Assembly: GCF_003667505.1 (NCBI RefSeq)
Contig: NZ_RCVJ01000154.1
Location: 1 to 64,000, forward strand
Length of the DNA stretch: 64,000 nt
Direction: 5' to 3'
Origin: Micromonospora sp. BL4
GTDB lineage: Bacteria; Actinomycetota; Actinomycetes; Mycobacteriales; Micromonosporaceae
A program made the position numbers and the translations under genes. The notes under the pieces are model-generated. The model made no database searches. It was given only the letters and a program-made list of their open reading frames with translations, and had not been told where the DNA came from. Positions within the stretch are counted from its first letter, which is position 1; each line of letters opens with the position of its first letter. Below, in pieces: positions 3,101 through 24,211 of this stretch.

Positions 3101-3913
3101 TTACTGGGTCGGCGGCTGCTGCTGAAGCTCACGCGGCGTGGTGCCGGTGGCGGTCACACCCTGGTTGCACAGCGCGGTCGGGCCTTCGACGGAGGCGTTC
3201 ACCCGCAGGTCCTTGATGAACTCGTCGATCCGCGAGTCGTCGGCGTTGTCGAGCTTGAGCTGGTAGCCCCACGCCTGCAGCGAGATCGGCTTGTCCAGGC
3301 CCTCGTACGGGCTCATCATCGTCTTCTCGACGCCCCGCACCTTGCCGGCGAGCTTGTCGACCTGGTCCTTCGGCAGGTCCGGGCGGTAGGTGATCCACAC
3401 CGCGCCGTGCTCCAGGCTGTGCACCGCGTGCTCGTTGGCGATCGGGGCGTCGTACACCTCGCCCATGCAGTTCTGCCAGGCGGCGTTGTGCACCCCACCC
3501 ACCGGCGGCGTGAACTTCCAGGTCAGCGGACCGGACTTGTGCGACTCGTACTTCAGGCTTTCCGGGTCCGACTTGCGGATGTTGACGATGCCGTCGATGG
3601 CGTTGGCCCGCTTGTCCCACGGCTTGGAGCCCTGGAACGACGCCCAGGCGCCGTAGCCGATGATGCCGGCCGCCAGCACACCCACGGCGACGAAGAGCGC
3701 GATCGGGCCCCAGGCCCGGCCCTGGCTCACCTTGACCGGGGCGATCGGCTTGCGGGGACCCTTGCCACCTGCCCGGGGGGAACCCGCCGGCTTGCCTGTC
3801 GGCTTGCCGGAACCAGCCTTGGCGCCGGACGCCGGCCGGCCTGCGGCCGGCTTCTTGCCGGTGCTGACCACGGTCGGGCGGCGCTCAGGGCCACCCGGGG
3901 TGCTGATGCTCAT
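3101..3913 (-). CDS. DUF3105 domain membrane protein
   Basis: 270 residues. A long Lys/Gly/Pro-rich cytoplasmic N-terminus (1-65), one membrane helix (about 69-93), and an extracytoplasmic DUF3105 domain (about 100-260). The family signature is visible in FTPPVGGVHNAAWQNCMG and VHSLEHGAVWITYRP, with conserved His and Glu. Two Cys (in NCMG and ALCNQG) could form a disulfide. It is first in a two-gene operon with DUF305, a pairing also known from other actinobacteria, which suggests a joint but undefined envelope role. The ATG has a weak GAGG site upstream. Confidence 0.85.
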   Translation of the reverse strand: MSISTPGGPERRPTVVSTGKKPAAGRPASGAKAGSGKPTGKPAGSPRAGGKGPRKPIAPVKVSQGRAWGPIALFVAVGVLAAGIIGYGAWASFQGSKPWDKRANAIDGIVNIRKSDPESLKYESHKSGPLTWKFTPPVGGVHNAAWQNCMGEVYDAPIANEHAVHSLEHGAVWITYRPDLPKDQVDKLAGKVRGVEKTMMSPYEGLDKPISLQAWGYQLKLDNADDSRIDEFIKDLRVNASVEGPTALCNQGVTATGTTPRELQQQPPTQ

Positions 3914-3999
3914 CGTGCCTCGTCAGGTCGGTTGGTCAGGGGAGGTGGCGGGCCGGATGACGCGCAGGGTCGCCGCCGAGTGCCCGAGTCTACCCCCGA

Positions 4000-4005
4000 T
4001 AACAT
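4000..4005 (+). promoter_or_regulatory. -10 box of argS, leaderless arrangement
   Basis: TAACAT is followed by 6 bp and then the GTG at 4012. This spacing puts the transcription start at or next to the start codon. No ribosome site precedes the GTG and no clear -35 is seen. Confidence 0.5.
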
Positions 4006-4011
4006 GGTTCG

Positions 4012-5679
4012 GTGACTCCTGCAGAACTAGCCTCGGTCGTCCTCACCGCTGCCCACGCCGTCTTCGCCGAGCGTGGCCTGGATCACGCCGCGCTGCCGGA
4101 GCGTACGGCGGTGGAGCGACCCCGCAACCCCGAGCACGGCGACTACGCCTCGACGCTCGCCCTGCAGTTGAGCAAGAAGGTGGGCGTACCGCCGCGTGAG
4201 CTGGCCGCAGCGCTGGCCGATGAGCTGGGTCGGGCGCCGGGGGTCAAGTCGGTGGAGATCGCCGGGCCGGGCTTTCTGAACATCCGGCTCGACGCGGCCG
4301 CCGCCGGTCAGCTCGCCCGGGTGATCGTCGAGGCGGGCGCGGAGTACGGCCGCAGCGACCGGCTCGCCGGTGAGAAGATCAATCTGGAGTTCGTCTCGGC
4401 CAACCCGACCGGCCCGGTGCACATCGGTGGGGTCCGCTGGGCGGCCGTCGGTGACGCGCTCAGCCGGCTGCTGCGGGCCACCGGCGCCGAGGTGGGCACG
4501 GAGTACTACTTCAACGACGCCGGGTCGCAGATCGACCGGTACGCCCGCTCGCTGCTCGCCGCCGCCAAGGGCCAGCCCACGCCGGAGGACGGCTACGGCG
4601 GGGCGTACATCGGGGAGATCGCCGCCGAGGTGCAGGCCCGCCGGCCGGAGGTGCTGACCCTGGACGACGTCGCCGCCCAGGAGGTGTTCCGGGTCGAGGG
4701 CGTCGCGCTGATGTTCGACGAGATCCGCTCCTCGTTGCGCGACTTCGGGGTGGAGTTCGACACCTACTTCAACGAGAAGGACCTGCACGACCGGGGTGAG
4801 CTGGACCTCGCCCTGGCCCGGCTGCGCGAGCAGGGCCAGGTCTACGAGGCCGAGGGCGCCACCTGGCTGCGCACCACCGACTTCGGCGACGACAAGGACC
4901 GGGTGCTGCGCAAGTCCGACGGCGAGTGGACCTACTTCGCCGCGGACTGCGCCTACTACCTGGACAAGCGGGAGCGCGGCTTCGAGCGGGTCGTGATCAT
5001 GCTGGGCGCCGACCACCACGGCTACATCGGCCGGATGAAGGCGATGGTCGCCTGCTTCGGCGACGACCCGGAGCGCAACCTGGAGATCCTCATCGGGCAG
5101 CTGGTCAGCCTGCTGCGCGACGGCGCCCCGATGCGGATGAGCAAGCGGGCCGGCACCGTGATCACCCTGGAGGATCTGGTCGACGCGATCGGCGTGGACG
5201 CCTCCCGGTACGCGCTGGCCCGCTACTCCAGCGACTCGCCGATCGACATCGACATCGAGCTGTGGACCCGGGCGACCCGCGACAACCCGGTCTACTACGT
5301 GCAGTACGTGGCCGCCCGGACGGCGGGTGTGGCCCGCAACGCGGCCGAGGTGGGGCTGGTCCCGGGCGACGCCGACGACTTCCGCCCCGAGCTGCTCGGG
5401 CACGAGAAGGAGAATGAGCTGCTCAAGGCGCTCGCCGAGTTCCCGGCGGTGGTGGCCACCGCCGCCGAGCTGCGGGAGCCGCACCGGGTGGCCCGCTACC
5501 TGGAGGAGAGCGTCGCCGCCTCCTTCCACCGGTTCTACGACAACTGTCGGGTGCTGCCGTTGGGCGACGAGGAGGTCACCGACCTGCACCGGGCACGGCT
5601 CTGGCTCAACAACGCCACCCGCACGGTGATCGCCAACGGCCTGCACCTGCTCGGCGTCTCCGCTCCCGAGAGGATGTAG
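4012..5679 (+). CDS. argS: Arginyl-tRNA synthetase
   Basis: 555 residues, normal for bacterial class I ArgRS, which attaches arginine to tRNA-Arg in the cytosol. Domains in order: N-terminal additional domain (1-90), Rossmann catalytic core with the HIGH-type motif GPVHIGG (near 140), KMSKS-type loop [10 protein letters not shown] (near 377), and a C-terminal DALR anticodon-binding domain (about 440-555) ending in [13 protein letters not shown]. The GTG start is set by the N-terminal homology and the upstream TAACAT. The stop lies 6 bp before lysA, so argS, lysA and hom probably share a transcript. Divergent from the DUF3105 gene. Confidence 0.97.
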
Positions 5680-5685
5680 TACCTG

Positions 5686-7071
5686 ATGCGTGCTCACGAG
5701 GCTGGTGCGCTGCACGGCGACATCGGCAACCGGGGGCCGGCCTGGCTGCGTACCCCCGACGACGTCAACGCCCTGATGCCGGCGCTGTGGCCGCGGACGG
5801 TGACGCGCGGCGCCGACGGCGCGGTCGCCGTCGCGGGCCTGAGCGTCCGCGACATCGCGGCCGAGTTCGGCACCCCGGTGTACGTGCTCGACGAGGACGA
5901 CCTGCGCTCACGCTGCCGGGACTTCCGGGCCGCCTTCCCGACCGAGGACGTCTACTACGCGGGCAAGGCGTTCCTGTGCCGGGCGGTGGTCCGGATGATC
6001 GCCGAGGAGGGGCTGCACCTCGACGTCTGCACCGGTGGTGAGCTGGCCACCGCCCTCGCGGCCGGGATGCCGCCGGAGCGGATCGGCTTCCACGGCAACA
6101 ACAAGTCGGTGGTCGAGCTGGCCCGGGCGCTGGACGCCGGTGTCGGGCGGATCATCCTCGACTCGTTCACCGAGATCGACCGGCTCACCGCGCTGGCCCG
6201 CGAGCGGGGCGTCCGCCCCCGGGTGCTGGTCCGGGTCACGGTCGGGGTCGAGGCGCACACCCACGAGTTCATCGCCACCGCCCACGAGGACCAGAAGTTC
6301 GGGTTCTCGCTGGCCGGCGGGGCGGCCGCGGCGGCCGCGTTCAAGGTGCTCGACGAGGACGTGCTGGAGCTGCGTGGCCTGCACTCGCACATCGGCTCGC
6401 AGATCTTCGACGCCAGCGGTTTCGAGGTCTCCGCCCGCCGGGTGCTCGCCCTCCAGGCGCAGATCCGCGACGCACGCGGGGTGGAGCTGCCCGAGCTGGA
6501 CCTGGGCGGCGGCTTCGGCATCGCGTACACCACCCAGGACGACCCGGCCGCTCCGCAGGACCTGGCCAAGCGGCTCCGCAAGATCGTCGACTCGGAGTGC
6601 GCCGCCGAGCGGCTGGCCGTGCCGCGGCTCTCCATCGAGCCGGGGCGGGCCATCGTCGGGCCGTCCGTGTTCACCCTCTACGAGGTCGGCACGGTGAAGG
6701 ACCTCGACGGCATCCGGACGTACGTCAGCGTCGACGGCGGGATGAGCGACAACATCCGCACCGCGCTCTACGACGCCTCGTACTCGGCGACGTTGGCCTC
6801 CCGCGCCTCGACCGCGCAGCCGATGCTCGCCCGCGTGGTGGGAAAGCACTGTGAGTCCGGGGACATCGTGGTGAAGGATGAATTCCTGCCCGCCGACGTG
6901 CAGCCCGGAGATCTTGTCGCGGTGCCCGGCACGGGCGCCTACTGCCGCAGCATGGCCAGCAACTACAACCACGTGCCGCGGCCCCCGGTGGTCGCGGTGC
7001 GCGACGGCCAGGCGCGTCTGATCGTCCGGCGGGAAACCGAAGAGGACCTGCTCGCATTGGATGTTGGATGA
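5686..7071 (+). CDS. lysA: Diaminopimelate decarboxylase
   Basis: 461 residues. A PLP enzyme making L-lysine from meso-diaminopimelate, the last lysine step. Fold III PLP-barrel (about 70-330) with the Schiff-base lysine in YYAGKAF, the phosphate-binding Gly-rich DLGGGFG, and EPGRAIVG. The C-terminal beta domain carries the Cys/Asp motif of the dimer active site (KHCESGDIV) and the conserved GAYCRSMASNYN. The ATG at 5686 gives an N-terminus about 30 residues longer than many homologues; ATG 5776 is an alternative. Its stop overlaps the hom start (ATGA), implying translational coupling. Confidence 0.95.
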   Translation: MRAHEAGALHGDIGNRGPAWLRTPDDVNALMPALWPRTVTRGADGAVAVAGLSVRDIAAEFGTPVYVLDEDDLRSRCRDFRAAFPTEDVYYAGKAFLCRAVVRMIAEEGLHLDVCTGGELATALAAGMPPERIGFHGNNKSVVELARALDAGVGRIILDSFTEIDRLTALARERGVRPRVLVRVTVGVEAHTHEFIATAHEDQKFGFSLAGGAAAAAAFKVLDEDVLELRGLHSHIGSQIFDASGFEVSARRVLALQAQIRDARGVELPELDLGGGFGIAYTTQDDPAAPQDLAKRLRKIVDSECAAERLAVPRLSIEPGRAIVGPSVFTLYEVGTVKDLDGIRTYVSVDGGMSDNIRTALYDASYSATLASRASTAQPMLARVVGKHCESGDIVVKDEFLPADVQPGDLVAVPGTGAYCRSMASNYNHVPRPPVVAVRDGQARLIVRRETEEDLLALDVG

Positions 7072-8390
7072 CGTCACCTGTGCGCTTGGCGCTGCTCGGC
7101 TGTGGCACGGTCGGCCAGGAGGTGGTCCGGCTGCTGCACGAGCAGGGCCCCGACCTGGCCGCCCGGATCGGCGCTCCGCTGGAGATCGCCGGCATCGCCG
7201 TCCGGCGACTCGGCCGCGATCGCGGTGACCTGCCGATCGACCCGACCCTGTTCACCACCGACGCGCTCGGCCTGATCAAGCGCGACGACGTGGATGTCGT
7301 GATCGAGGTGGTCGGCGGTATCGAGCCGGCCCGGAGCTGGCTGGTCGAAGCGCTGCGTGCCGGCAAGAGCGTCGTCACCGCCAACAAGGCGCTGCTCGCC
7401 GAGGACGGCGTGGCGCTGCACGAAGCGGCCGCCGAGGGCGGCGGCGACCTCTACTACGAGGCGTCCGTGGCCGGGGCCATCCCGCTGCTGCGCCCGCTGC
7501 GCGAGTCGCTGCACGGCGACCGGATCAACCGGGTCACCGGCATCGTCAACGGCACCACCAACTTCATCCTCTCCGCCATGGACGCCACCGGCGCCGGCTT
7601 CGCCGAGGCCCTCGACGAGGCCACCGAGCTGGGGTACGCGGAGGCCGACCCGACCGCCGACGTGGAGGGCTTCGACGCGGCGGCCAAGGCGGCGATCCTC
7701 GCCTCGCTGGCGTTCCACACCCGGGTCGGCGCCGCCGACGTGCACCGGGAGGGCATCACCGAGGTGACCGCCGCGGACGTGGCCAGCGCGCAGGCGATGG
7801 GCTGCACGATCAAGCTGCTCTGCATCGCGGCCCGCGGTGTCGACCCGGCCGGCCGGGAGACGGTCAGCGTCCGGGTGCACCCGGCGATGATCCCGCGCAG
7901 CCACCCGCTGGCCAGCGTCGGCGACGCGTTCAACGCGGTCTTCGTGGAGGCGGACGCGGCCGGGGAGCTGATGTTCTACGGCCGGGGCGCGGGTGGCGCG
8001 CCGACCGCCAGCGCGGTGCTCGGCGACGTGGTGGCGGTGTCCCGCAACCGGCTCGCCGGGGTGCGCGCGGCCAGCGAGAGCGCGTACGCCGACCTCGCGG
8101 TCCGGCCGATGGGCGAGGCGCTGACCCGCTACCACGTCAGCCTGGACGTGGCCGACCGTCCGGGTGTGCTGGCCGCGGTGGCGGGCGTCTTCGCCCGGCA
8201 CGACGTGTCGATCGCGACCGTGCGGCAGGGTTCGGCCGGCGGTCCACCCGGCCGGGACGGCGACGCCGAACTGGTGATCGTCACCCACGTGGCGCCGGAC
8301 GCCGCGCTCGCCGCGACCGTAAGTGAGCTGCGCGGCCTGGACATCGTCCGGTCGGTGACCAGCGTGCTGCGGGTCGAGGGCGGGGTGTGA
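7068..8390 (+). CDS. hom: Homoserine dehydrogenase
   Basis: 440 residues. NAD(P)-dependent reduction of aspartate semialdehyde to homoserine, the branch point to threonine and methionine. N-terminal Rossmann domain with LLGCGTVGQEV (about residues 6-16), central catalytic domain with GIVNGTTNFIL and the conserved EADPTADVEGFDAA, and a C-terminal ACT domain (from about 348, beginning YHVSLDVADRPGVLA) that normally confers threonine feedback control. A Gly/Pro-rich insertion, GSAGGPPGRDGD, lies in the ACT domain. Start overlaps the lysA stop by 4 bp. Confidence 0.96.
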   Translation: MTSPVRLALLGCGTVGQEVVRLLHEQGPDLAARIGAPLEIAGIAVRRLGRDRGDLPIDPTLFTTDALGLIKRDDVDVVIEVVGGIEPARSWLVEALRAGKSVVTANKALLAEDGVALHEAAAEGGGDLYYEASVAGAIPLLRPLRESLHGDRINRVTGIVNGTTNFILSAMDATGAGFAEALDEATELGYAEADPTADVEGFDAAAKAAILASLAFHTRVGAADVHREGITEVTAADVASAQAMGCTIKLLCIAARGVDPAGRETVSVRVHPAMIPRSHPLASVGDAFNAVFVEADAAGELMFYGRGAGGAPTASAVLGDVVAVSRNRLAGVRAASESAYADLAVRPMGEALTRYHVSLDVADRPGVLAAVAGVFARHDVSIATVRQGSAGGPPGRDGDAELVIVTHVAPDAALAATVSELRGLDIVRSVTSVLRVEGGV

Positions 8391-15438: not shown

Positions 15439-15732
15439 TTACGCTCTAGACCTAGCACAGCCGCGAAGCACGCGATCTCCTGCGGGGCGGCGCACCCCCG
15501 AAGCTCTCGGCGGTAAGCCCGTCACCCCTGCCAAGGCCCACGCCGCGCCGCAGTTTCCACAGGTCGCCGCAGACGGCGAGACCTGCTCACCGACGTTTGG
15601 TGAGTCGGGAAACCACCGGCTGCTGTGTCACAGACTCCCGCGACGCGTCCTTGCGAGGCGGGTGCACCGAGGCCGCCCGGCCACCTGAGTCCGACTCCGG
15701 GCAGTCCCGGCCTTATCGAGGGAAGGAATCCA
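15439..15732 (+). other. Long untranslated leader upstream of rho
   Basis: 294 bp without a convincing gene. A possible promoter is TTGCCG (15416-15421) and TACGCT (15440-15445) with an 18-bp spacer, overlapping the end of thrB, which would give a ~280-nt leader. rho genes are commonly autoregulated by premature termination within a leader, so this is a plausible regulatory 5'UTR, but no specific element can be shown by eye. Confidence 0.4.
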
Positions 15733-17904
15733 TTGAGCGACACCACCGACGTGACGTCGGATGTTTCCAACGTCGCTGGCGATGCCACCACCGCCGCTCC
15801 CGCCCGTCGTCGGCGCAGCGGCACCGGTCTGTCGGCGATGCTGCTGCCAGAGCTGCAGAGCCTGGCTGCGTCGCTCGGCATCTCCGGCACGGCTCGCATG
15901 CGTAAGGGCGAGCTGATCGCCGCGATCTCCGAGCGGCAGGGCGGCAACGCCGCCGGTACCCCTCGACCGCGGGCCGAGGTCGCGGCCGCGGCCGCTCCGA
16001 CGCGCGAGGAGGTGCGGGAGACCGTGGACCGTCCGGCGACGGAGGGACGCACTGACCAGGCGCCGGCCGAGCCGGCCGCCGAGACCGAGGGCCGGGGTCG
16101 TACCCGGCGCAGCCGGACCGCCACGGCGGAGGCGCGCGCCACTGAGGCGCGTACCGACGAGGCGGAGGCCGGCGAGCGGACCGACCGGAGCGAGAACCGC
16201 CGGGACCGGGCCGAGCGTCCGGAGCGCACCGAGCGTGCCGACCGGGGCGAGCGGGCCGAGCGCACCGAGCGTGCGGATCGGGCCGAGCGCACCGAGCGTG
16301 CGGATCGGGCCGAGCGCACTGACCGCACCGAGCGTGCCGATCGGGGCGAGCGTGCCGACCGGGGCGAGCGTGCCGAGCGCACCGACCGGGGCGAGCGTCC
16401 CGAGCGCACCGAGCGTGCGGAGCGGGGCGAGCGTGCCGAGCGGGGTGACCGTGTCGAGCGGGGCGAGCGCAACGACCGTGGCGAGCGTGCCGAGCGGGGC
16501 GAGCGCAACGATCGGTCGGAGCGTTCCGACCGTGGCGAGCGGGCCGAGCGCAACGAGCGTGGTGACCGCAACGACCGGGGCGACCGCAACGACCGCAACG
16601 ACCGTGGCCAGCGCGCCGAGCGGGACAACGACGACGATGACGGCGAGGGCGGCGGTCGGCGTGGCCGGCGCAGCCGCTTCCGGGACCGCCGGCGCGGCCG
16701 CGGCGAGCGCTCCGAGACCGGTGGCGACGCCGGTGGGCGCGAGCCGCAGGTCGGCGAGGACGACGTGCTCGTCCCGGTGGCCGGCATCATCGACGTGCTC
16801 GACAACTACGCCTTCGTGCGGACGACCGGCTACCTGGCCGGCCCGAACGACGTGTACGTCTCGATGTCCCAGATCAAGAAGTACGGCCTGCGCCGCGGTG
16901 ACGCGATCACCGGTGCGGTGCGTGCGGCCCGTGAGGGCGGCAACAGCGGCGATCAGCGGCGGGACAAGTACAACCCGCTGATGCGGCTGGACACGATCAA
17001 CGGCATGGAGCCGGAGGAGGCGCGGCGGCGGCCGGAGTTCTACAAGCTCACGCCGCTCTACCCGCAGGAGCGCCTGCGGCTGGAGACCGAGCCGCACATC
17101 CTGACGACCCGGGTCATCGACCTGGTCATGCCGATCGGCAAGGGCCAGCGCGCGCTCATCCAGTCGCCGCCGAAGGCCGGTAAGACGATGGTGCTCCAGG
17201 CGATCGCGAACGCGATCACCCGGAACAACCCGGAGTGCCACCTGATGGTGGTGCTGGTGGACGAGCGGCCTGAAGAGGTCACCGACATGCAGCGGTCGAT
17301 CAAGGGCGAGGTCATCGCGGCCACGTTCGACCGTCCGCCGCAGGACCACACCACGGTGGCCGAGCTGGCGATCGAGCGGGCGAAGCGCCTGGTCGAGCTG
17401 GGGCACGACGTGGTCGTGCTGCTGGACTCGGTGACCCGGCTCGGTCGGTCGTACAACCTGGCGGCGCCGGCCAGCGGCCGGATCATGTCGGGTGGTATCG
17501 ACTCCACCGCCCTCTACCCGCCGAAGCGCTTCCTCGGCGCGGCTCGCAACATCGAGAACGGCGGCTCGCTGACCATCATCGCCACCGCGCTGGTGGAGAC
17601 CGGGTCCATGGCGGACACGGTCATCTTCGAGGAGTTCAAGGGCACCGGCAACGCGGAGCTGAAGCTGGACCGGAAGATCGCCGACAAGCGGACCTTCCCG
17701 GCCATCGACATCAACCCGTCCGGCACCCGTAAGGAAGAGGTCCTGCTCGCGCCCGAAGAGCTGGCCATCATCCACAAGCTCCGGAAGGTGCTGCACTCGC
17801 TGGACTCGCAGGCCGCGATGGATCTGCTGCTGGACCGCCTCAAGCAGTCCCGCACCAACATCGAGTTCCTGATGCAGATCGCGAAGTCGACGCCGGGGGA
17901 GTAA
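15733..17904 (+). CDS. rho: Transcription termination factor Rho with long Arg-rich insertion
   Basis: 723 residues from TTG 15733, which follows an AAGGAA ribosome site, against 419 in E. coli. Order: N-terminal SAP-like Rho-N helix domain (residues ~30-70, with MRKGELIAAI), a charged linker, about 150 residues (148-297) of tripeptides of the type E/D-R-X, a basic patch, the cold-shock RNA-binding domain (about 345-425), and the RecA-like ATPase with Walker A SPPKAGKTM, Walker B VVVLLDSVTRL and the Q/R-loop region. Similar insertions occur in Rho of Micrococcus and Streptomyces and are thought to aid termination on GC-rich RNA. ATP-driven hexameric helicase. A hairpin follows. Confidence 0.96.
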   Translation: MSDTTDVTSDVSNVAGDATTAAPARRRRSGTGLSAMLLPELQSLAASLGISGTARMRKGELIAAISERQGGNAAGTPRPRAEVAAAAAPTREEVRETVDRPATEGRTDQAPAEPAAETEGRGRTRRSRTATAEARATEARTDEAEAGERTDRSENRRDRAERPERTERADRGERAERTERADRAERTERADRAERTDRTERADRGERADRGERAERTDRGERPERTERAERGERAERGDRVERGERNDRGERAERGERNDRSERSDRGERAERNERGDRNDRGDRNDRNDRGQRAERDNDDDDGEGGGRRGRRSRFRDRRRGRGERSETGGDAGGREPQVGEDDVLVPVAGIIDVLDNYAFVRTTGYLAGPNDVYVSMSQIKKYGLRRGDAITGAVRAAREGGNSGDQRRDKYNPLMRLDTINGMEPEEARRRPEFYKLTPLYPQERLRLETEPHILTTRVIDLVMPIGKGQRALIQSPPKAGKTMVLQAIANAITRNNPECHLMVVLVDERPEEVTDMQRSIKGEVIAATFDRPPQDHTTVAELAIERAKRLVELGHDVVVLLDSVTRLGRSYNLAAPASGRIMSGGIDSTALYPPKRFLGAARNIENGGSLTIIATALVETGSMADTVIFEEFKGTGNAELKLDRKIADKRTFPAIDINPSGTRKEEVLLAPEELAIIHKLRKVLHSLDSQAAMDLLLDRLKQSRTNIEFLMQIAKSTPGE
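16174..16624 (+). repeat. 9-bp-period repeat coding for the Rho E/D-R-X tract
   Basis: Codon triplets such as GAGCGTGCC, GAGCGCACC and GACCGGGGC repeat about 50 times within rho. A 27-bp block starting GAGCGCACCGAGCGTGCG is perfectly duplicated near 16258-16311. Such arrays are prone to length change. Confidence 0.8.
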
Positions 17905-18057: not shown

Positions 18058-21000
18058 ATGCGTACCCGCAGACGATCCGCCCGCCGCACCGGCGTCCTGC
18101 TGCTGACGCCGCTGCTCATCCTGGTCGGTCCGGTGCCGGCGACAGCCGCCGCGCCGGCAGCCGCCCCCGTGGCCCCGTCCACCGTCGCCGAGGACGCGCC
18201 GCCCGCGTCGTCCCGGTCGGCCGGCTCGGTCAGTCTGGCCGCCGACCCGGCCACCGCGACCGCCGCGACCGCCGCCGCCGACGGCCTGGAGCCGGCCGGC
18301 GGCCTGGAGACCACGAAGGCCACCCGGCCGGTCGCGCCGGGCGTGCAACTCACCTCCTTCGACCGGTACGACGCCGAGGGCTGGCTGCGTGCCGACGCGC
18401 TCACCACCGACCTCGGCGGCGGGGCGACGGTCGACTACGTCAACTCCGGAGCCGTCAGCCGGGCCGAGCCGCTGCGGGGGGCGGTGGACCGCTCGCGCGC
18501 CGTCGCCGCGGTCAACGGTGACTTCTTCGACATCAACAACTCCGGCGCCGCCCAGGGCGTCGGCATCCGTGACGGCGAGCTGATCCAGTCGGCGGTCAGC
18601 GGTCACCGCAACGCGGTGGCGGTCACCGCGGACGGCCTCGGTCGAGTCATCGAGGTGAACTTCGACGGCACGGCCACGCTGCCCACCGGGCCGGTGCCGT
18701 TGACGCAGTTCAACAACATCGTGCAGGCCGACGGCATCGGCGCGTTCACCGAGCTCTGGGGGACGTACCCGCGCGAGCGGGCGGTCTCGGGCTCGGCCCG
18801 CGTCGTCGAGGTCGTCGTGACCGGTGGCCGCGTGGCCGCGGTGGCCGGCGGGGCCGGTAGCGGCCCGATCGTCGCCGGCAGCACCGTGCTGCTCGGCCGC
18901 GACGCCGGGGCGGACGCGTTGGCCGGGCTCCGCCCGGGTGACCCGGTGACGGTGGCCTGGCAGCCGAAGCCGTCCGACGGCAGCACCCTGCACGCGGCGG
19001 TCGGCGGTGGCAACGTGCTGGTCCGCGACGGGGTCGTGCAGAGCATCGCCGACCCGACGCTGGCGCCGCGCACGGCGGTCGGCTTCACCGCCGACGGTCG
19101 TAAAATGATCATGTTGACCGTGGATGGTCGGCAGGTCGACAGTCGCGGCGTCACCCAGACCGAGATGGGCCGGATGATGGCCGAACTGGGCGCCCACCAC
19201 GCGCTCAACCTGGACGGTGGTGGCTCGTCCACCCTGCTGGCCCGGGAGCCCGGCGCGCCGGCCGTGCAGGTCGAGAACGCGCCCTCGGACGGCAGCGAGC
19301 GGGCCGTGCCGAACGGCCTGGCCATCTACGCGCCGAAGGGCAGCGGCCGGCTCACCGGCTACTGGGTGGAGACTGCCAGCGACCCCACCGCCGCCCCCGG
19401 CATCTCACCGGTGCGCGGCGGCCGCCCCGACCGCGTCTTCCCCGGCCTCACCCGCACCCTAACCGCGGCCGGCTACGACGAGACGTACGGCCCGGCGGCC
19501 GGCGCACCGACCTGGCGCGTGACTCCGGCGGCACAGGGCCGGGTCGACCGTGACGGGGTGTTCCACGCCCGCGTGCCGGGGGCCAGCACGGTCACCGCGG
19601 CGCGCGGTCGGGCAACCGGCTCGCTGGGCCTCACGGTGCTCGGACCGCTGGCCCGAGTCGACTCCACAGTGGAACGGGTCGGGCTGACCGGTCGGGACGG
19701 CAACGCCCTCGTCGGTGTGGTCGGCTACGACGCCGAGGGCAACACCGCACCGATCGAGCCGGCCGACCTGACCCTCGACTACGACCGGGACCTGCTGCGG
19801 ATCACCCCCACCGACGACGGCAACCTCGCCGTCACCGCGCTGCGCGAGACCGGCTCCGGACTGGTCACCGTCCACGTCGGACGCCACACCACCGTCCTGC
19901 CGGTCACCGTCGGACTGACCGACGTTCCGGTGGCCGGCTTCGACGACGCCGCGTCCTGGCGGTTCAGCCAGGCCCGGGCCAGCGGCTCGGTCGCGCCCGC
20001 GCCGGGCCACACCGGCACGGGCCTGCGGATGTCGTACGACTTCAGCCAGTCCACCGGCACCCGGGCCGCGTACGCGGACCCGCCGGCCTGGATCGAGGTG
20101 CCCGGTCAGCCGCAGGCGTTCGGCATGTGGATCCACGGCAACGGCACCGGGGAGTGGCCCAGCCTGCACCTGCACGACGCCCAGGACACCCAGCACGTGC
20201 TGCGCGGTCCGCTGATCACCTGGACCGGCTGGCGGTACGTGGAGTTCGCGGTGCCGGCGGGGGTGCAGTACCCGGTGCGTGTCCGCCGGTTCTACGTGGC
20301 CGAGACCAACGCCGCCGCGCAGTACACCAGCGAGGTCATCATCGACGACCTGGTGGCGAAGGTGCCGCCCACGGTCGACGTGCCGCCGGTGGCGCCGCGT
20401 ACCGATCGGGTCGTGGTCCGCGACGGCACCGTGGACGGCGCACCCTGGCGGTTCGCGGTGCTGTCCGACGCCCAGTTCGTCGCCGCCGACCCGGACAGCG
20501 ACCTGGTCGCCCAGGCCCGGCGGACGCTGCGCGAGGTGAAGGCGGCCCGGCCGGACTTCCTGCTGATCAACGGGGACCTCGTGGACACCGCGTACCCGGC
20601 CGACTTCGCGCTGGCGAAGCGGATCCTCGACGAGGAGCTGGGCGACGCGCTGCCCTGGTACTACGTGCCCGGCAACCACGAGATCATGGGCGCCCCGATC
20701 AGCAACTTCCAGGCCGTGTTCGGCGCGACCTCGCGGGTGTTCGACCACGCCGGCACCCGGTTCGTCACGCTGAACTCGTCCACCGGGACGCTGCGCGGCG
20801 GAGGCTTCGACCAGGTGCGGATGCTGCGCGAGACGCTGGACGCGGCGGCCGCCGACCGGCGGGTCGGGTCGGTGGTCGTCCTGCACCATCACCCGCCGCG
20901 CGACCCCAGCCCGGCGCAGGCCAGCCAGCTCGGTGACCGCAAGGAGGCGGCGCTGCTGGAGCAGTGGCTGGCCGACTTCCAGCACCGCACCGGCAAGGGC

Positions 21001-21537
21001 GCGCTGTTCGTGGGCGGGCACGTCGGCACGTTCCACGCCGACCGGGTCGACGGGGTGCCGTACGTCATCAACGGCAACTCGGGCAAGACGCCGTCCACCC
21101 CGGCGGACCAGGGCGGCTTCACCGGCTGGACGGAGTTCGGCGTGGACCCGGTCACCCGGGCCGAGGCCGAACGTGCCCGGCGCGACCCGCTCGCCGAGGG
21201 GCCGCGCTGGGTGGACGCGGAGTTCCACGCGCACGTGGACCAGCTCGCGGTGAACGCCCCGCCCAGCGTCGCGGTCGGCGTCCCGGCGTCGGTCACCGCC
21301 ACGCTGACCCAGCCGGGTGGGCGTACCGTCCCGGTGGCCGCCCCGGTCAGCGCGGACTGGTCCGCCTCGCCGGGGGTGCACATCGGCGCCGCGGCCGGAG
21401 TCCGCCCGTGGCACACCGCCCGCTTCGACCCGGCCACCGGCACCCTGACCGCGCTGCGCCCCGGCGCCCCCGTCCGCCTGACCGTCACCGTCAACAACCT
21501 TCGCGCCGAAGCCACCGTCAAGCTGACGGCCCGCTGA
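18058..21537 (+). CDS. Secreted phosphodiester glycosidase plus metallophosphoesterase
   Basis: 1159 residues. A signal peptide (1-31: RRR, hydrophobic core, ATAAA), then a phosphodiester glycosidase/NAGPA domain (about 80-425) with VNGDFFDINN, GHRNAVAVT and LNLDGGGSSTLL. Next come Ig-like modules (about 430-625), a beta-sandwich stretch (about 630-780), and a calcineurin-like metallophosphoesterase (about 795-1040) with the metal motifs SDAQ, NGDLVD, GNHE and HHHP plus GGHVG. A final Ig-like domain ends the protein. It likely acts outside the cell on phosphodiester-linked sugars or teichoic-acid-type polymers; both activities are inferred from domains. It interrupts the usual rho-rpmE neighbourhood. 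Confidence 0.85.
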   Translation: MRTRRRSARRTGVLLLTPLLILVGPVPATAAAPAAAPVAPSTVAEDAPPASSRSAGSVSLAADPATATAATAAADGLEPAGGLETTKATRPVAPGVQLTSFDRYDAEGWLRADALTTDLGGGATVDYVNSGAVSRAEPLRGAVDRSRAVAAVNGDFFDINNSGAAQGVGIRDGELIQSAVSGHRNAVAVTADGLGRVIEVNFDGTATLPTGPVPLTQFNNIVQADGIGAFTELWGTYPRERAVSGSARVVEVVVTGGRVAAVAGGAGSGPIVAGSTVLLGRDAGADALAGLRPGDPVTVAWQPKPSDGSTLHAAVGGGNVLVRDGVVQSIADPTLAPRTAVGFTADGRKMIMLTVDGRQVDSRGVTQTEMGRMMAELGAHHALNLDGGGSSTLLAREPGAPAVQVENAPSDGSERAVPNGLAIYAPKGSGRLTGYWVETASDPTAAPGISPVRGGRPDRVFPGLTRTLTAAGYDETYGPAAGAPTWRVTPAAQGRVDRDGVFHARVPGASTVTAARGRATGSLGLTVLGPLARVDSTVERVGLTGRDGNALVGVVGYDAEGNTAPIEPADLTLDYDRDLLRITPTDDGNLAVTALRETGSGLVTVHVGRHTTVLPVTVGLTDVPVAGFDDAASWRFSQARASGSVAPAPGHTGTGLRMSYDFSQSTGTRAAYADPPAWIEVPGQPQAFGMWIHGNGTGEWPSLHLHDAQDTQHVLRGPLITWTGWRYVEFAVPAGVQYPVRVRRFYVAETNAAAQYTSEVIIDDLVAKVPPTVDVPPVAPRTDRVVVRDGTVDGAPWRFAVLSDAQFVAADPDSDLVAQARRTLREVKAARPDFLLINGDLVDTAYPADFALAKRILDEELGDALPWYYVPGNHEIMGAPISNFQAVFGATSRVFDHAGTRFVTLNSSTGTLRGGGFDQVRMLRETLDAAAADRRVGSVVVLHHHPPRDPSPAQASQLGDRKEAALLEQWLADFQHRTGKGALFVGGHVGTFHADRVDGVPYVINGNSGKTPSTPADQGGFTGWTEFGVDPVTRAEAERARRDPLAEGPRWVDAEFHAHVDQLAVNAPPSVAVGVPASVTATLTQPGGRTVPVAAPVSADWSASPGVHIGAAAGVRPWHTARFDPATGTLTALRPGAPVRLTVTVNNLRAEATVKLTAR

Positions 21538-21547
21538 GGGCTGGGAA

Positions 21548-21585
21548 GGGCCCCTTCCTGTCGCCTCCCGCGCAGGAAGGGGCCC
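21548..21585. terminator. Bidirectional terminator between convergent genes
   Basis: GGGCCCCTTCCTG (21548-21560) pairs perfectly with CAGGAAGGGGCCC (21573-21585). It lies 10 bp after the glycosidase stop and 6 bp from the stop of the convergent kinase gene. Confidence 0.88.
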
Positions 21586-21590
21586 GCCTT

Positions 21591-22487
21591 TCAGAAGTCG
21601 CCGTCGGCCACCTGGAAGACGGTGAGGCCGAGGGCCCGCCACATCTGGACCACCTGGGCGCGGTCGTCGAACACACCGACCACCCGGTAGCGGTCCCGGA
21701 TCTCCCGCTCGTAGATCTCCCGCTTGACGACGGAGTCCTTGCGGGAGTCGCCCACCGCGCGTAGGTGCAGGCCGAGGTAGGGCACCCGGACGTGTCGGGC
21801 CAGCCACGTCTCGGTGGCCGCCCGCGCCGAGGCGTCCCGCCCGGAGCAGAAGACCACCCCGTACCCGGCGGCGTGCATGGCCCGGACCGCCGCGATCACC
21901 GCCGGGTTCGGCTGGTCCTCGCCCACCCTGGTCATGTCGTACGGGCTGCGCGAGACGGCCAGCGCGACGGTGCCGTCGATGTCCACCAGGACGATCTCCG
22001 GTGGTTCGGTCGACGGCGGGCGCACGGTGGCGGGTCGTCCGGTGCGGGCCTGTGGCACCGGCAGCGGCAGCGTCCGCCCCTCCAGGTAGCGCTCGTGCAG
22101 CCGGCGGATCACGTCCGCGCCGACCCGGTCGGCCTCCGGGCGGGCGGCGTCGCGGCGCAGGCACTCGGCCAGTGGCACGTCGGTGAAGTCGTGCACCTCG
22201 AACTCGGCGCCGTACCGGGCGGCCAGGTCGGCCCAGTCCCGCAGGGTTCGCGAGCGCAGGTTGGTGTCGTCCACGCAGACGTCCGCCCGGGTCCGCAGCA
22301 GCGCCTCGACCTGCGCCCGCTGGACGGTGGTCACCTGCGCCTCGGCCCACTGGGTGAAGAGCCGCTCGCCGTGCAGCATCCGGCGCAGGTCGTCACGGTT
22401 GACCCGGACCACGGACGGCTGGAGGGTCCGGGCGAAGGTCGTCTTGCCGGACGCCGGCAGGCCCCGGGTGGCGATCAGGCGGGTCAT
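21591..22487 (-). CDS. T4-type polynucleotide 5'-kinase/3'-phosphatase
   Basis: 298 residues from the ATG at 22487, which has a GGAGGGGA ribosome site; the longer frame to 22529 lacks one. It matches phage T4 Pnkp (301 residues) end to end. Kinase domain: P-loop GLPASGKTT (about 9-17), catalytic NRDDLRR, and DDTNLRSRTLR. HAD phosphatase domain: VDIDGTVA (about 164-171), CSGRD, DSRKDSVVKREIY, DDRAQVVQMWR and the terminal QVADGDF. It should phosphorylate 5'-OH ends and remove 3'-phosphates of cleaved RNA or DNA. No ligase gene is nearby. Gene convergent with the glycosidase and divergent from rpmE. Confidence 0.9.
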   Translation of the reverse strand: MTRLIATRGLPASGKTTFARTLQPSVVRVNRDDLRRMLHGERLFTQWAEAQVTTVQRAQVEALLRTRADVCVDDTNLRSRTLRDWADLAARYGAEFEVHDFTDVPLAECLRRDAARPEADRVGADVIRRLHERYLEGRTLPLPVPQARTGRPATVRPPSTEPPEIVLVDIDGTVALAVSRSPYDMTRVGEDQPNPAVIAAVRAMHAAGYGVVFCSGRDASARAATETWLARHVRVPYLGLHLRAVGDSRKDSVVKREIYEREIRDRYRVVGVFDDRAQVVQMWRALGLTVFQVADGDF

Positions 22488-22762
22488 CGGCTCCCCTCCG
22501 GCTGGGCGGGCGTACCCCCGGCGGGGCACTCGGCGGCGTCCCGCCGGGTGGGTGAATGCCCGGCCGGACGCCGGGAATGCGGACGGGGAGGCACGTGTTG
22601 ACGATGCCGGACGAGGTGTGCGGCCCGATTACCGGGTCGGCTCAGGCCCATGGCACACTGGTCAATCGGCCACCGGTTCCGGTTCACGCCCGAGCCCGTC
22701 GCGCACGGCGCGACGGGCGGTGACGGCGACCCGGCGACCACCAACGAGAGGACCGAGGCGAG

Positions 22763-22987
22763 ATGAAGGCAAACATCCACCCGGAGTACGTGACCACCGA
22801 GGTCAGCTGCTCCTGTGGCAACACGTTCACGACCCGCAGCACCGCCAAGGGCGGGGCGATCCACGTCGAGACCTGCAGCGCCTGCCACCCGTTCTACACC
22901 GGTAAGCAGCGCGTTCTCGACACCGCCGGCCGGGTCGCGAAGTTCCAGCAGAAGTACGCCAAGGTTCAGGCCAAGAAGGCCAAGTAG
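22763..22987 (+). CDS. rpmE: 50S ribosomal protein L31 (zinc-binding form)
   Basis: 74 residues. The CSCG and CSAC pairs (residues 14-16 and 35-38) mark the Zn-binding C+ type of L31 rather than the zinc-free paralogue used under zinc limitation. KANIHPEY and HPFYTGKQR are family signatures. Ribosome site GAGGACCGAGGCGAG upstream. Followed by its own terminator, then prfA. Confidence 0.97.
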
Positions 22988-23122: not shown

Positions 23123-24211
23123 ATGAGCAGCGAGCGTCTGGCCGGCCTCCTCGACGAGTACGCGGAGCTGGAGAAGCGGCTGGCCGATCCGGCCATCCAC
23201 GCCGACCAGGCGACCGCGCGGCGGGTCGGCCGCCGGTACGCCGAGCTGGTGCCGCTGCACAAGGCTGCCGGCGAGCTGGAGCAGGCGCGTGCCGACCTAG
23301 CGGCTGCCCGTGAGCTGGCTGCCGAGGATCCCTCCTTCGCCGCCGAGACCGAGGCGATCGCGGCGTCCCTGCCGGTCCTGGAGGAGCGGCTCGCCGAGCT
23401 GCTCATCCCGCGTGACCCGCACGACGCCAAGGACGTGATCGTCGAGATCAAGGCCGGTGAGGGCGGCGAGGAGTCGGCGCTGTTCGCCGGCGACCTGCTG
23501 CGGATGTACAGCCGGTACGCCGAGCGCCACGGCTGGATCACCGAGGTGATCGACGCGCAGGACTCCGACCTGGGCGGCGTCAAGGACGTCTCGCTGTCGA
23601 TCAAGACCAAGGGCGTCCCGGAGGGCGGCAACGGCGTCTGGTCGCGGCTCAAGTGGGAGGGCGGCGTGCACCGGGTGCAGCGCGTCCCGGTCACCGAGTC
23701 GCAGGGTCGGATCCACACCAGCGCCGCCGGGGTGCTGGTGCTGCCGGAGGCCGAGGACGTCGACGTCACCATCGACCAGAACGACCTGCGTATCGACGTG
23801 TTCCGCTCGTCCGGCCCGGGCGGCCAGTCGGTGAACACCACCGACTCGGCGGTGCGGATCACCCACCTGCCGACCGGCATCGTCGTCTCCTGCCAGAACG
23901 AGAAGTCCCAGTTGCAGAACCGGGAGCAGGCGATGCGGATCCTGCGGGCCCGGTTGCTCGCCGCCGCCCAGGAGCAGGCCGACGCCGCCGCATCGGACGC
24001 CCGGAAGGCGCAGGTGCGTACGGTGGACCGCTCGGAGCGGATCCGCACCTACAACTTCCCGCAGAACCGGATCACCGACCACCGGATCGGCTACACCGCG
24101 TACAACCTGGATCTGGCTCTGGCCGGCGAGCTGGACGGGGTGCTGGACGCCCTGACCGAGGCCGACCGCGCCGCCCGGCTGGCCGGCGACACCGAGCTGA
24201 CCCGCCGCTGA
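23123..24211 (+). CDS. prfA: Peptide chain release factor 1
   Basis: 362 residues. Reads UAA/UAG and triggers peptide release on the ribosome. The codon-recognition tripeptide is PVT (in [10 protein letters not shown]), the RF1 type, and the catalytic GGQ lies in [15 protein letters not shown] (about residue 236). Coiled-coil N-terminal domain 1-110. ATG preceded by GAAGGAG. Its GGQ glutamine is the substrate of PrmC, encoded 1.7 kb downstream beyond a divergent gene. Confidence 0.97.

What the first reader, a model, noticed from the sequence alone, without database searches (positions are those of the whole stretch)
21591..22487. Stand-alone T4-phage-type polynucleotide kinase-phosphatase in an actinobacterial core region
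The protein matches T4 Pnkp over its full length: P-loop GLPASGKTT, NRDD, DIDGTVA, DSRKDSVVK, DDRAQVVQMWR and QVADGDF appear in the same order and spacing. In T4 this enzyme heals tRNA cut by host anticodon nucleases. In this chromosome there is no RNA ligase, toxin or phage gene beside it, which leaves open what RNA it repairs and which ligase seals it. It sits between rho and rpmE, where I expect no such gene.
Basis: partly seen in the sequence, partly recalled or inferred. Interest (0 to 1): 0.72.

Follow-up and report, generated by a model that had tools for sequence, protein, structure and literature searches.

The report
RNA-end healing gene without its ligase
A soil bacterium of the genus Micromonospora carries a phage-type enzyme that repairs the broken ends of RNA; many relatives keep the matching RNA-joining enzyme beside it, but this genus has lost that partner and still preserves the end-repair half, so what the lone enzyme now does is a testable open question.

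Summary
Confirmed: window 22487-21591 (minus strand) encodes a 298-aa T4-type polynucleotide kinase-phosphatase with both domains and the catalytic residues. The host groups with Micromonospora. The gene is not misplaced: in 22 of 22 loci read from 19 genera of the family, pnkp sits beside rpmE and prfA on the opposite strand. In 13 of these 19 genera a T4-Rnl1-type RNA ligase gene lies upstream on the same strand, usually close against it: the T4 healing-and-sealing pair. Two Arthrobacter phages carry the same two-gene order (47-51% identity), so the cassette is probably phage-derived. In Micromonospora the ligase is gone (0 of 151 genomes; the same profile finds it in known carriers), while pnkp is found in 92 of 151, with dN/dS about 0.2. 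By my reading of the tree, the ligase was lost about five times at this locus; one genome of another genus still carries a ligase remnant. The own genome showed no Rnl1- or Rnl2-type ligase, but three RtcB genes, whose end chemistry is the opposite of what Pnkp makes. Best reading: a functional orphan healing enzyme, remnant of a domesticated phage RNA-repair cassette. Its present role (healing alone, DNA-end repair, or an unknown ligase) is inferred, not shown.

The parts
21591..22487 (-). pnkp: T4-type polynucleotide 5'-kinase / 3'-phosphatase, 298 aa, ATG start
22071..22478 (-). kinase domain (AAA_33, residues 4-139): P-loop K15-T16, D32, R35, R116
   Evidence: Pfam; paired with T4 residues by the alignment (T4 catalytic numbers recalled); conserved in 43 of 43 distinct genus sequences (T16: 42 T, 1 S), and in 48 of 48 named Micromonospora loci (T16: 45 T, 3 S)
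21594..22001 (-). phosphatase domain (HAD_PNKP, residues 163-298): D169, D171, R180, R217, D251, K255, D274, D275
   Evidence: 43 of 43 conserved; in the 48 named loci one has E at 274 and one (L189) could not be aligned past residue 244
22488..22762 (.). 275-bp gap between pnkp and the divergent rpmE, where relatives carry the Rnl1-type ligase gene; GGAGGGG just upstream of the pnkp ATG; no ligase remnant detected
22763..22987 (+). rpmE (ribosomal protein L31), divergent neighbour
23123..24211 (+). prfA (release factor 1), syntenic marker
18058..21537 (+). phosphodiester glycosidase (NAGPA) + calcineurin-like phosphoesterase, convergent neighbour; found at this locus in some genomes with and some without pnkp
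21548..21585 (.). perfect 12-bp inverted repeat (21548-21559 / 21574-21585) between the convergent stops, possible terminator without a T-run
   Evidence: the terminator scan (needs a T-run) found none

Best explanation
The gene encodes a working T4-type Pnkp. Expected chemistry (by family): it removes a 2',3'-cyclic phosphate or 3'-phosphate to leave 3'-OH, and phosphorylates 5'-OH ends, on RNA and possibly DNA. It is the surviving half of a two-gene Rnl1-Pnkp RNA-repair cassette, probably of actinophage origin, that became fixed beside rpmE in Micromonosporaceae. In the Micromonospora lineage the ligase gene was lost, and pnkp has since been kept by purifying selection in most of the genus, though lost several times. 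Shown: identity, intact active sites, fixed locus, upstream Rnl1-type ligase in relatives, no detectable such ligase in the genus sample, purifying selection. Inferred: phage origin; loss rather than gain of the ligase; enzymatic activity; that the lone enzyme now acts by healing ends without sealing by an Rnl1 ligase (so that 3'-OH/5'-P RNA pieces can be trimmed, degraded and recycled, or so that DNA ends can be passed to DNA ligases).
For: Family and fold; AlphaFold model whose phosphatase half fits T4 Pnkp at 1.9 A (5uj0, TMt 0.90) and kinase half at 2.0 A (1ly1, TMt 0.77). Synteny. Rnl1 upstream in relatives; T4 Rnl1 is the best PDB hit by sequence and by fold. Ligase absent from genus sample: 0 of 151, the same profile positive in known carriers. 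pnkp in 92 of 151. Selection: dN/dS 0.20 over 43 distinct sequences (from 45 loci, the best-scoring of the carriers), 0.20 kinase half, 0.18 phosphatase half; 0.24 over 48 named Micromonospora. Tree: 15 Micromonospora rows in one clade (SH-aLRT 100) without rnl1, beside Plantactinospora with rnl1 (86); 7 state changes in all, at least 4 forced by starred branches. Snapshot of loss: G063 keeps both ends of rnl1 and lacks the middle, next to an intact pnkp. Phage pair: Arthrobacter phages Bauer and Seahorse, RNA ligase then PNK with a 4-bp overlap.
Against: No activity was measured. No pnkp was found in 59 of 151 genus genomes, it changes state 5 times (at least 3 forced) on a prfA tree of 38 genus genomes, and truncated or shifted copies exist (G171, G306, perhaps L189), so it is not essential and selection may be weakening: its amino-acid rate relative to prfA is 3.1 in Micromonospora against 1.4 in Actinoplanes-type loci, although prfA itself evolves differently in the two groups. 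Counts on a tree cannot tell gain from loss; the direction rests on phages, other actinobacteria and second copies having the pair, and on the G063 remnant. No remnant was found in 107 short gaps read, including Micromonospora. Not every viral ligase relative has the pair: of 80 viral loci (the best of 390) 64 hold a pnkp match and 22 have it directly downstream. The full-length model superposes poorly on T4 Pnkp (TM 0.44, 16.7 A; pTM 0.53), so the arrangement of the halves is unsure; the same holds for the ligase model on T4 Rnl1 (TM about 0.5, 23 A).
Confidence: 0.8

Rival explanations
1. Pnkp in Micromonospora still works in RNA repair, with a ligase of another family encoded elsewhere that the profiles used here do not recognise.
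For: Purifying selection on both domains. In relatives the ligase type at this locus varies: besides Rnl1, a small PF09414 ligase (205 aa as read in G143) lies directly downstream in Actinoplanes-type genomes, and close relatives of it are unlinked in G010, G037 and G048, so an unlinked partner is possible.
Against: PF09414 finds only an ATP-dependent DNA ligase in the own genome; PF09511 and the Rnl1 profile find none there. Rnl3-Rnl6 families were not searched. RtcB needs 3'-phosphate or cyclic phosphate and 5'-OH (general knowledge), which Pnkp destroys; the high-scoring RtcB type does not track pnkp (14 of 23 genus genomes with intact pnkp against 7 of 15 without; counted by me).
Confidence: 0.25
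2. Pnkp now serves DNA-end repair, feeding 3'-OH/5'-P ends to DNA ligases.
For: T4 Pnkp phosphorylates DNA as well as RNA (stated in a passage of PMC6777427). An ATP-dependent DNA ligase is present in the genome.
Against: I saw no DNA-repair genes at the locus (ORF list and synteny). The ancestral neighbour is an RNA ligase. Ku, LigD and other DNA-repair genes were not searched, so this rival is little tested.
Confidence: 0.25
3. The gene is a decaying leftover with no current function.
For: Not found in 59 of 151 genus genomes, several losses, truncated copies in G171 and G306, one named locus (L189) not alignable past residue 244, higher relative amino-acid rate than in Actinoplanes-type loci.
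Against: dN/dS 0.20-0.24, catalytic residues kept in 43 of 43 sequences and nearly all of 48 named loci, both domains equally constrained; 88 of 92 carriers have a full-length first-type copy. A neutral gene would not keep this across the genus.
Confidence: 0.1

Closest known systems
Bacteriophage T4 Pnkp with Rnl1 (tRNA repair after anticodon-nuclease cleavage)
   Same: Same two-domain enzyme, full-length alignment, catalytic residues, same fold of each domain; relatives of the window gene carry an Rnl1-type ligase beside it.
   Different: Chromosomal, fixed beside rpmE in a bacterial family; in this genus the ligase is missing.
Arthrobacter phages Bauer and Seahorse, RNA ligase - polynucleotide kinase gene pair
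   Same: Same gene order, with a 4-bp overlap as in L073 and L066; identity for kinase and ligase 48% and 51% (Bauer), 47% and 50% (Seahorse) over nearly the whole proteins.
   Different: Phage-borne, ligase present.
Bacterial Pnkp1-Rnl-Hen1 (Capnocytophaga gingivalis)
   Same: T4-type Pnkp in a bacterial chromosome, in an operon with a separate RNA ligase; its Pnkp1 is the best PDB sequence match (PMC4411300, first of six parts read).
   Different: Its Rnl resembles the ligase domain of Pnkp-Hen1, and repair needs Hen1 as well; in the window's genome no such ligase was found, and Hen1 was not searched.
Pnkp-Hen1 (Clostridium thermocellum type)
   Same: Bacterial end-healing for RNA repair; kinase domain fold match at 22% identity (4gp7).
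   Different: Kinase, phosphatase and ligase are one protein there (passage of PMC6777427); the window protein ends after a HAD-type phosphatase and has no ligase domain.

Membership tests
T4 Pnkp family (bifunctional kinase-phosphatase) | N-terminal P-loop kinase followed by C-terminal HAD/DxDxT phosphatase, about 300 aa | tested here: met
T4 Pnkp family (bifunctional kinase-phosphatase) | catalytic residues of both sites | tested here: met
   positions paired with T4 by the alignment (T4 residue numbers recalled); 43 of 43 genus sequences; exceptions among 48 named loci given
T4 Pnkp family (bifunctional kinase-phosphatase) | 5'-kinase and 3'-phosphatase / cyclic phosphodiesterase activity | not testable with these tools
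   needs purified protein
T4-like Rnl1-Pnkp repair cassette | Rnl1-type ligase gene beside pnkp | tested here: not met
   in the window and genus; met in 13 of 19 genera read
T4-like Rnl1-Pnkp repair cassette | Rnl1- or Rnl2-type ligase elsewhere in the same genome | tested here: not met
Pnkp1-Rnl-Hen1 system | separate Rnl in operon with Pnkp1 | tested here: not met
Pnkp1-Rnl-Hen1 system | Hen1 methyltransferase in the genome | not tested
Pnkp-Hen1 system | fused kinase-phosphatase-ligase protein | tested here: not met

The most novel reading that the evidence does not exclude
Micromonospora (and independently several sister lineages) has turned a captured phage healing-and-sealing cassette into a healing-only pathway: Pnkp converts 2',3'-cyclic-phosphate/5'-OH RNA ends made by toxin-type RNases into 3'-OH/5'-P as an end in itself, for example to let 3' exonucleases clear or recycle cleaved RNA, with no ligation step. 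Closely related genera with and without the ligase form a natural experiment.
Probability: 0.35. Interest if true: 0.65.

Novelty: new variant of a known kind. Interest (0 to 1): 0.5.

Why it matters
Pnkp enzymes of this type are usually studied as the first half of a repair that ends in ligation (general knowledge). Here is a bacterial family in which the phage-type pair sits in the chromosome, and in which the ligase appears to have been lost several times while the healing enzyme stayed under selection. That makes it possible to ask directly what end healing is worth without sealing, using natural ligase-plus and ligase-minus relatives, and it gives a case of phage RNA-repair genes becoming part of a bacterial core region.

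Tried and rejected
Plus-strand reading of the coordinates: has a stop, rejected. PF09414 hit in the own genome as a candidate RNA ligase: it is an ATP-dependent DNA ligase (DNA_ligase_A_N/M/C all above cut-off), rejected as Rnl. RtcB as sealing partner: three copies in the genome, but opposite end chemistry and no association of the high-scoring type with pnkp (counted). Small 205-aa ligase in Micromonospora: in the 38 genus genomes of the family sample PF09414 gives at most one weak match each, like the DNA ligase of the own genome (I looked only at that one), except G195 with a better one (2.4e-13) that I did not examine. Ligase remnant in the window gap: none. Defence annotation: PADLOC gives only a weak, partial AAA match (0.0025). 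NCBIfam gives only two kinase hits far below their cut-offs. Promoter and terminator scan: nothing. Literature: searches showed me, in the listings, no paper on an Rnl1-Pnkp operon or a solo Pnkp in Micromonosporaceae; the listings were partial (30 of 81, 7 of 8, 10 of 11, 10 of 42), I saw titles and abstract starts, and the library holds open-licence PMC papers only, so this is no proof of absence. Passages were read in PMC6777427, PMC9218956 (its 'PNKP' is a 96-kDa Saccharopolyspora protein, a different one), PMC3710099, PMC12153264, PMC12606134 and PMC3400036, one section of the last, and the first of six parts of PMC4411300.

Full report
What is there. The ORF lies on the minus strand, 22487-21591, 298 aa with an ATG and GGAGGGG just upstream. 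It has a P-loop kinase domain (AAA_33) and a Pnkp-type HAD phosphatase domain (PF25109), matches PHROG 505 over its length, and aligns end to end with T4 Pnkp and Capnocytophaga Pnkp1. An AlphaFold model (mean pLDDT 89, pTM 0.53) has T4 Pnkp as its first PDB hit; each half fits well on its own (phosphatase 1.9 A, kinase 2.0 A), while the whole fits poorly (TM 0.44), so the relative placing of the halves is uncertain. Membership in the T4 Pnkp family is secure on sequence and domain folds; activity is untested.

Whose genome. The own genome has one pnkp.

The locus is conserved. I read stretches of up to 14 kb around 22 intact pnkp genes from 19 genera of the family, plus the window. All 22 have rpmE and prfA beside pnkp with pnkp on the opposite strand; 21 of 22 show rho on the other side (in L073 the stretch ends before it). 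In a sample of 200 family genomes a match at E <= 0.001 is found in 141, a count that includes weak and single-domain matches. In a sample of 396 genomes of the phylum only 4 match at E <= 1e-25: the own genome and three of one genus in another family (44-45% identity; the tool does not name them, I take them for Streptomyces). So within the phylum this gene is largely a feature of one family, at a fixed place.

The missing partner. In 14 of the 22 loci (13 of 19 genera) a protein of about 360 aa lies upstream of pnkp on the same strand. The alignments end 0-135 bp before pnkp in 12 of these loci; in L072 and L074 the gap is 1659 and 763 bp. In L073 the ligase stop (7729) and pnkp start (7732) overlap by 4 bp. 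Two of these proteins scanned match Pfam RNA_lig_T4_1 above its cut-off; for one, T4 Rnl1 is the best PDB sequence match (3e-9) and the best fold match (TM about 0.5 over the whole length). The ligase motif K-x-D-G is invariant in 15 rows. This is the T4 pair: healing and sealing side by side. In the window the space between pnkp and rpmE is only 275 bp, with no remnant. PF09511 hits 68 of 200 family genomes, none of them of the own genus (38 genomes in the sample). A 15-row profile finds it in 0 of 151 genus genomes. That empty answer was controlled: of 33 genomes given, 11 rang, 10 of them strongly (E below 1e-169). Eight of the strong ones (G182, G178, G102, G188, G161, G061, G190, G005) were not used to build the profile; G016 and G077 were. 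The own genome again gave nothing. The weak one (G063) is a 29-residue hit, explained below. In 48 named Micromonospora loci no ligase match was found in the flanks held.

Loss, not a different start. On a pnkp tree of 78 rows (quick method, SH-aLRT only) the 15 Micromonospora rows form one clade (100) without the ligase, beside Plantactinospora rows with it (86). The state changes 7 times in the whole tree, at least 4 forced by starred branches; by my reading of the drawn tree five of these fall among the chromosomal first-type rows (Micromonospora; Phytohabitans with g18 and L200; g27 with g43; g19; Jidongwangia). States of phage and second-copy rows depend on the short flanks read. Direction: the actinophage pair (Arthrobacter phages Bauer and Seahorse, ligase then kinase with a 4-bp overlap), the three genomes outside the family (two read as ORF lists; the third by tblastn) and second copies in G010 and G077 carry ligase followed by pnkp. 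So do 22 of 80 viral loci found by the ligase profile (the best 80 of 390); in 42 further loci a pnkp match lies elsewhere in the stretch (three of them directly upstream), and in 16 there is none. Some phages have a pnkp without the ligase in the stretch read (Aegeus, Bantam). In G063 (g43) the ligase is caught in decay: about 26 codons of its start and about 28-48 of its end remain in different frames, the middle is gone, pnkp beside it is intact; alignment scores are 74-87 against shuffle maxima of 45-51.

Ligase turnover elsewhere. In Actinoplanes-type genomes and Spirilliplanes a second, small ligase (205 aa as read in G143; PF09414, 5e-30) lies directly downstream of pnkp. G152, G076 and G194 have pnkp plus this small ligase but no Rnl1; G164 and G196 have the small ligase at the locus and no pnkp there. 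Relatives of the small ligase are unlinked in G010, G037 and G048. Pnkp thus seems to tolerate changes of partner.

Is the orphan functional? pnkp is in 92 of 151 genus genomes at E <= 1e-40. Of these, G171 and G306 are truncated, G238 matches only to residue 246, and G216 has only a second-type copy, leaving 88 with a full-length first-type copy. Over 43 distinct sequences (45 loci given, the best-scoring ones; 2 not aligned from residue 1 left out) dN/dS is 0.20 (kinase 0.20, phosphatase 0.18) and the catalytic positions are kept in 43 of 43, with one T16S. In 48 named Micromonospora loci (partly the same strains) the 13 positions are kept too, except three T16S and one D274E, and one locus (L189) that aligns only to residue 244. 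dN/dS over these 48 is 0.24, against 0.18 in 24 ligase-bearing Actinoplanes-type loci; relative to prfA the amino-acid rate is 3.1 against 1.4, but prfA's own dN/dS differs between the groups (0.09 and 0.17), so relaxation is suggested, not shown. On a prfA tree of 38 genus genomes (23 with, 15 without intact pnkp) presence changes 5 times, at least 3 forced. So the gene is useful but dispensable.

What else could seal. The own genome's only PF09414 match is an ATP-dependent DNA ligase. It has three RtcB genes. One, on C24, is followed by an RF-1-domain gene of PrfH type, resembling the RtcB2-PrfH pair reported to protect E. coli from colicin E3 (PMC9223846: title and abstract start seen). RtcB uses the very ends that Pnkp removes (general knowledge), so RtcB is an unlikely partner and could be a competitor. 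Rnl3-6, Hen1, anticodon nucleases and Ku/LigD were not searched.

Mechanism. Most likely: Pnkp heals 2',3'-cyclic phosphate/5'-OH ends left by RNases of the toxin type. In the ancestor Rnl1 then sealed them, as described for T4 in PMC3400036 (section read). In Micromonospora sealing by Rnl1 no longer occurs, so healing itself, or hand-over to another ligase or to DNA ligases, must carry the benefit. The first part follows from the family; the last is inference.

Novelty. T4-type Pnkp in a bacterial chromosome with a ligase partner is known (Pnkp1-Rnl-Hen1, PMC4411300, first of six parts read). I found no paper on the Rnl1-Pnkp locus of Micromonosporaceae or on a conserved Pnkp after ligase loss (searches; partial listings; open-licence PMC only). 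I rate it a new variant of a known kind.

Noticed in passing
L239 (own genome C24:45000-57000): 5507-6694 and 6493-7335, +: An RtcB gene followed by an overlapping RF-1-domain gene of PrfH type, resembling the RtcB2-PrfH ribosome-repair pair.
   Followed up: partly
L239: 4925-5449, +: Upstream of that RtcB an ORF repeats its N-terminal part in degenerate form, like a partial tandem duplicate (seen by eye).
   Followed up: no
L068:7378-7992 (+) and neighbours in g28/g29 genomes: A very small PF09414 RNA ligase (205 aa as read) directly downstream of pnkp; the listed phage relatives (41-51% identity) are mostly very large phages of other hosts; no significant PDB sequence match (best E 0.44).
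   Followed up: partly
L235 (Micromonospora genome G285): 3908-6249, -: A second-type pnkp (57% identity) with a 467-aa PF09414 ligase directly upstream; my guess is a mobile or prophage region, not tested.
   Followed up: partly
L230:1343-1631, +: Remnant of the Rnl1-type ligase (both ends, middle missing) beside an intact pnkp in genome G063.
   Followed up: yes
window 15625-17904, +: rho carries a long Arg/Asp/Glu/Gly-rich repetitive stretch in its N-terminal part.
   Followed up: no
window 18058-21537, +: The NAGPA + metallophosphoesterase gene is present at this locus in some genomes with and some without pnkp, so it is not tied to it.
   Followed up: partly
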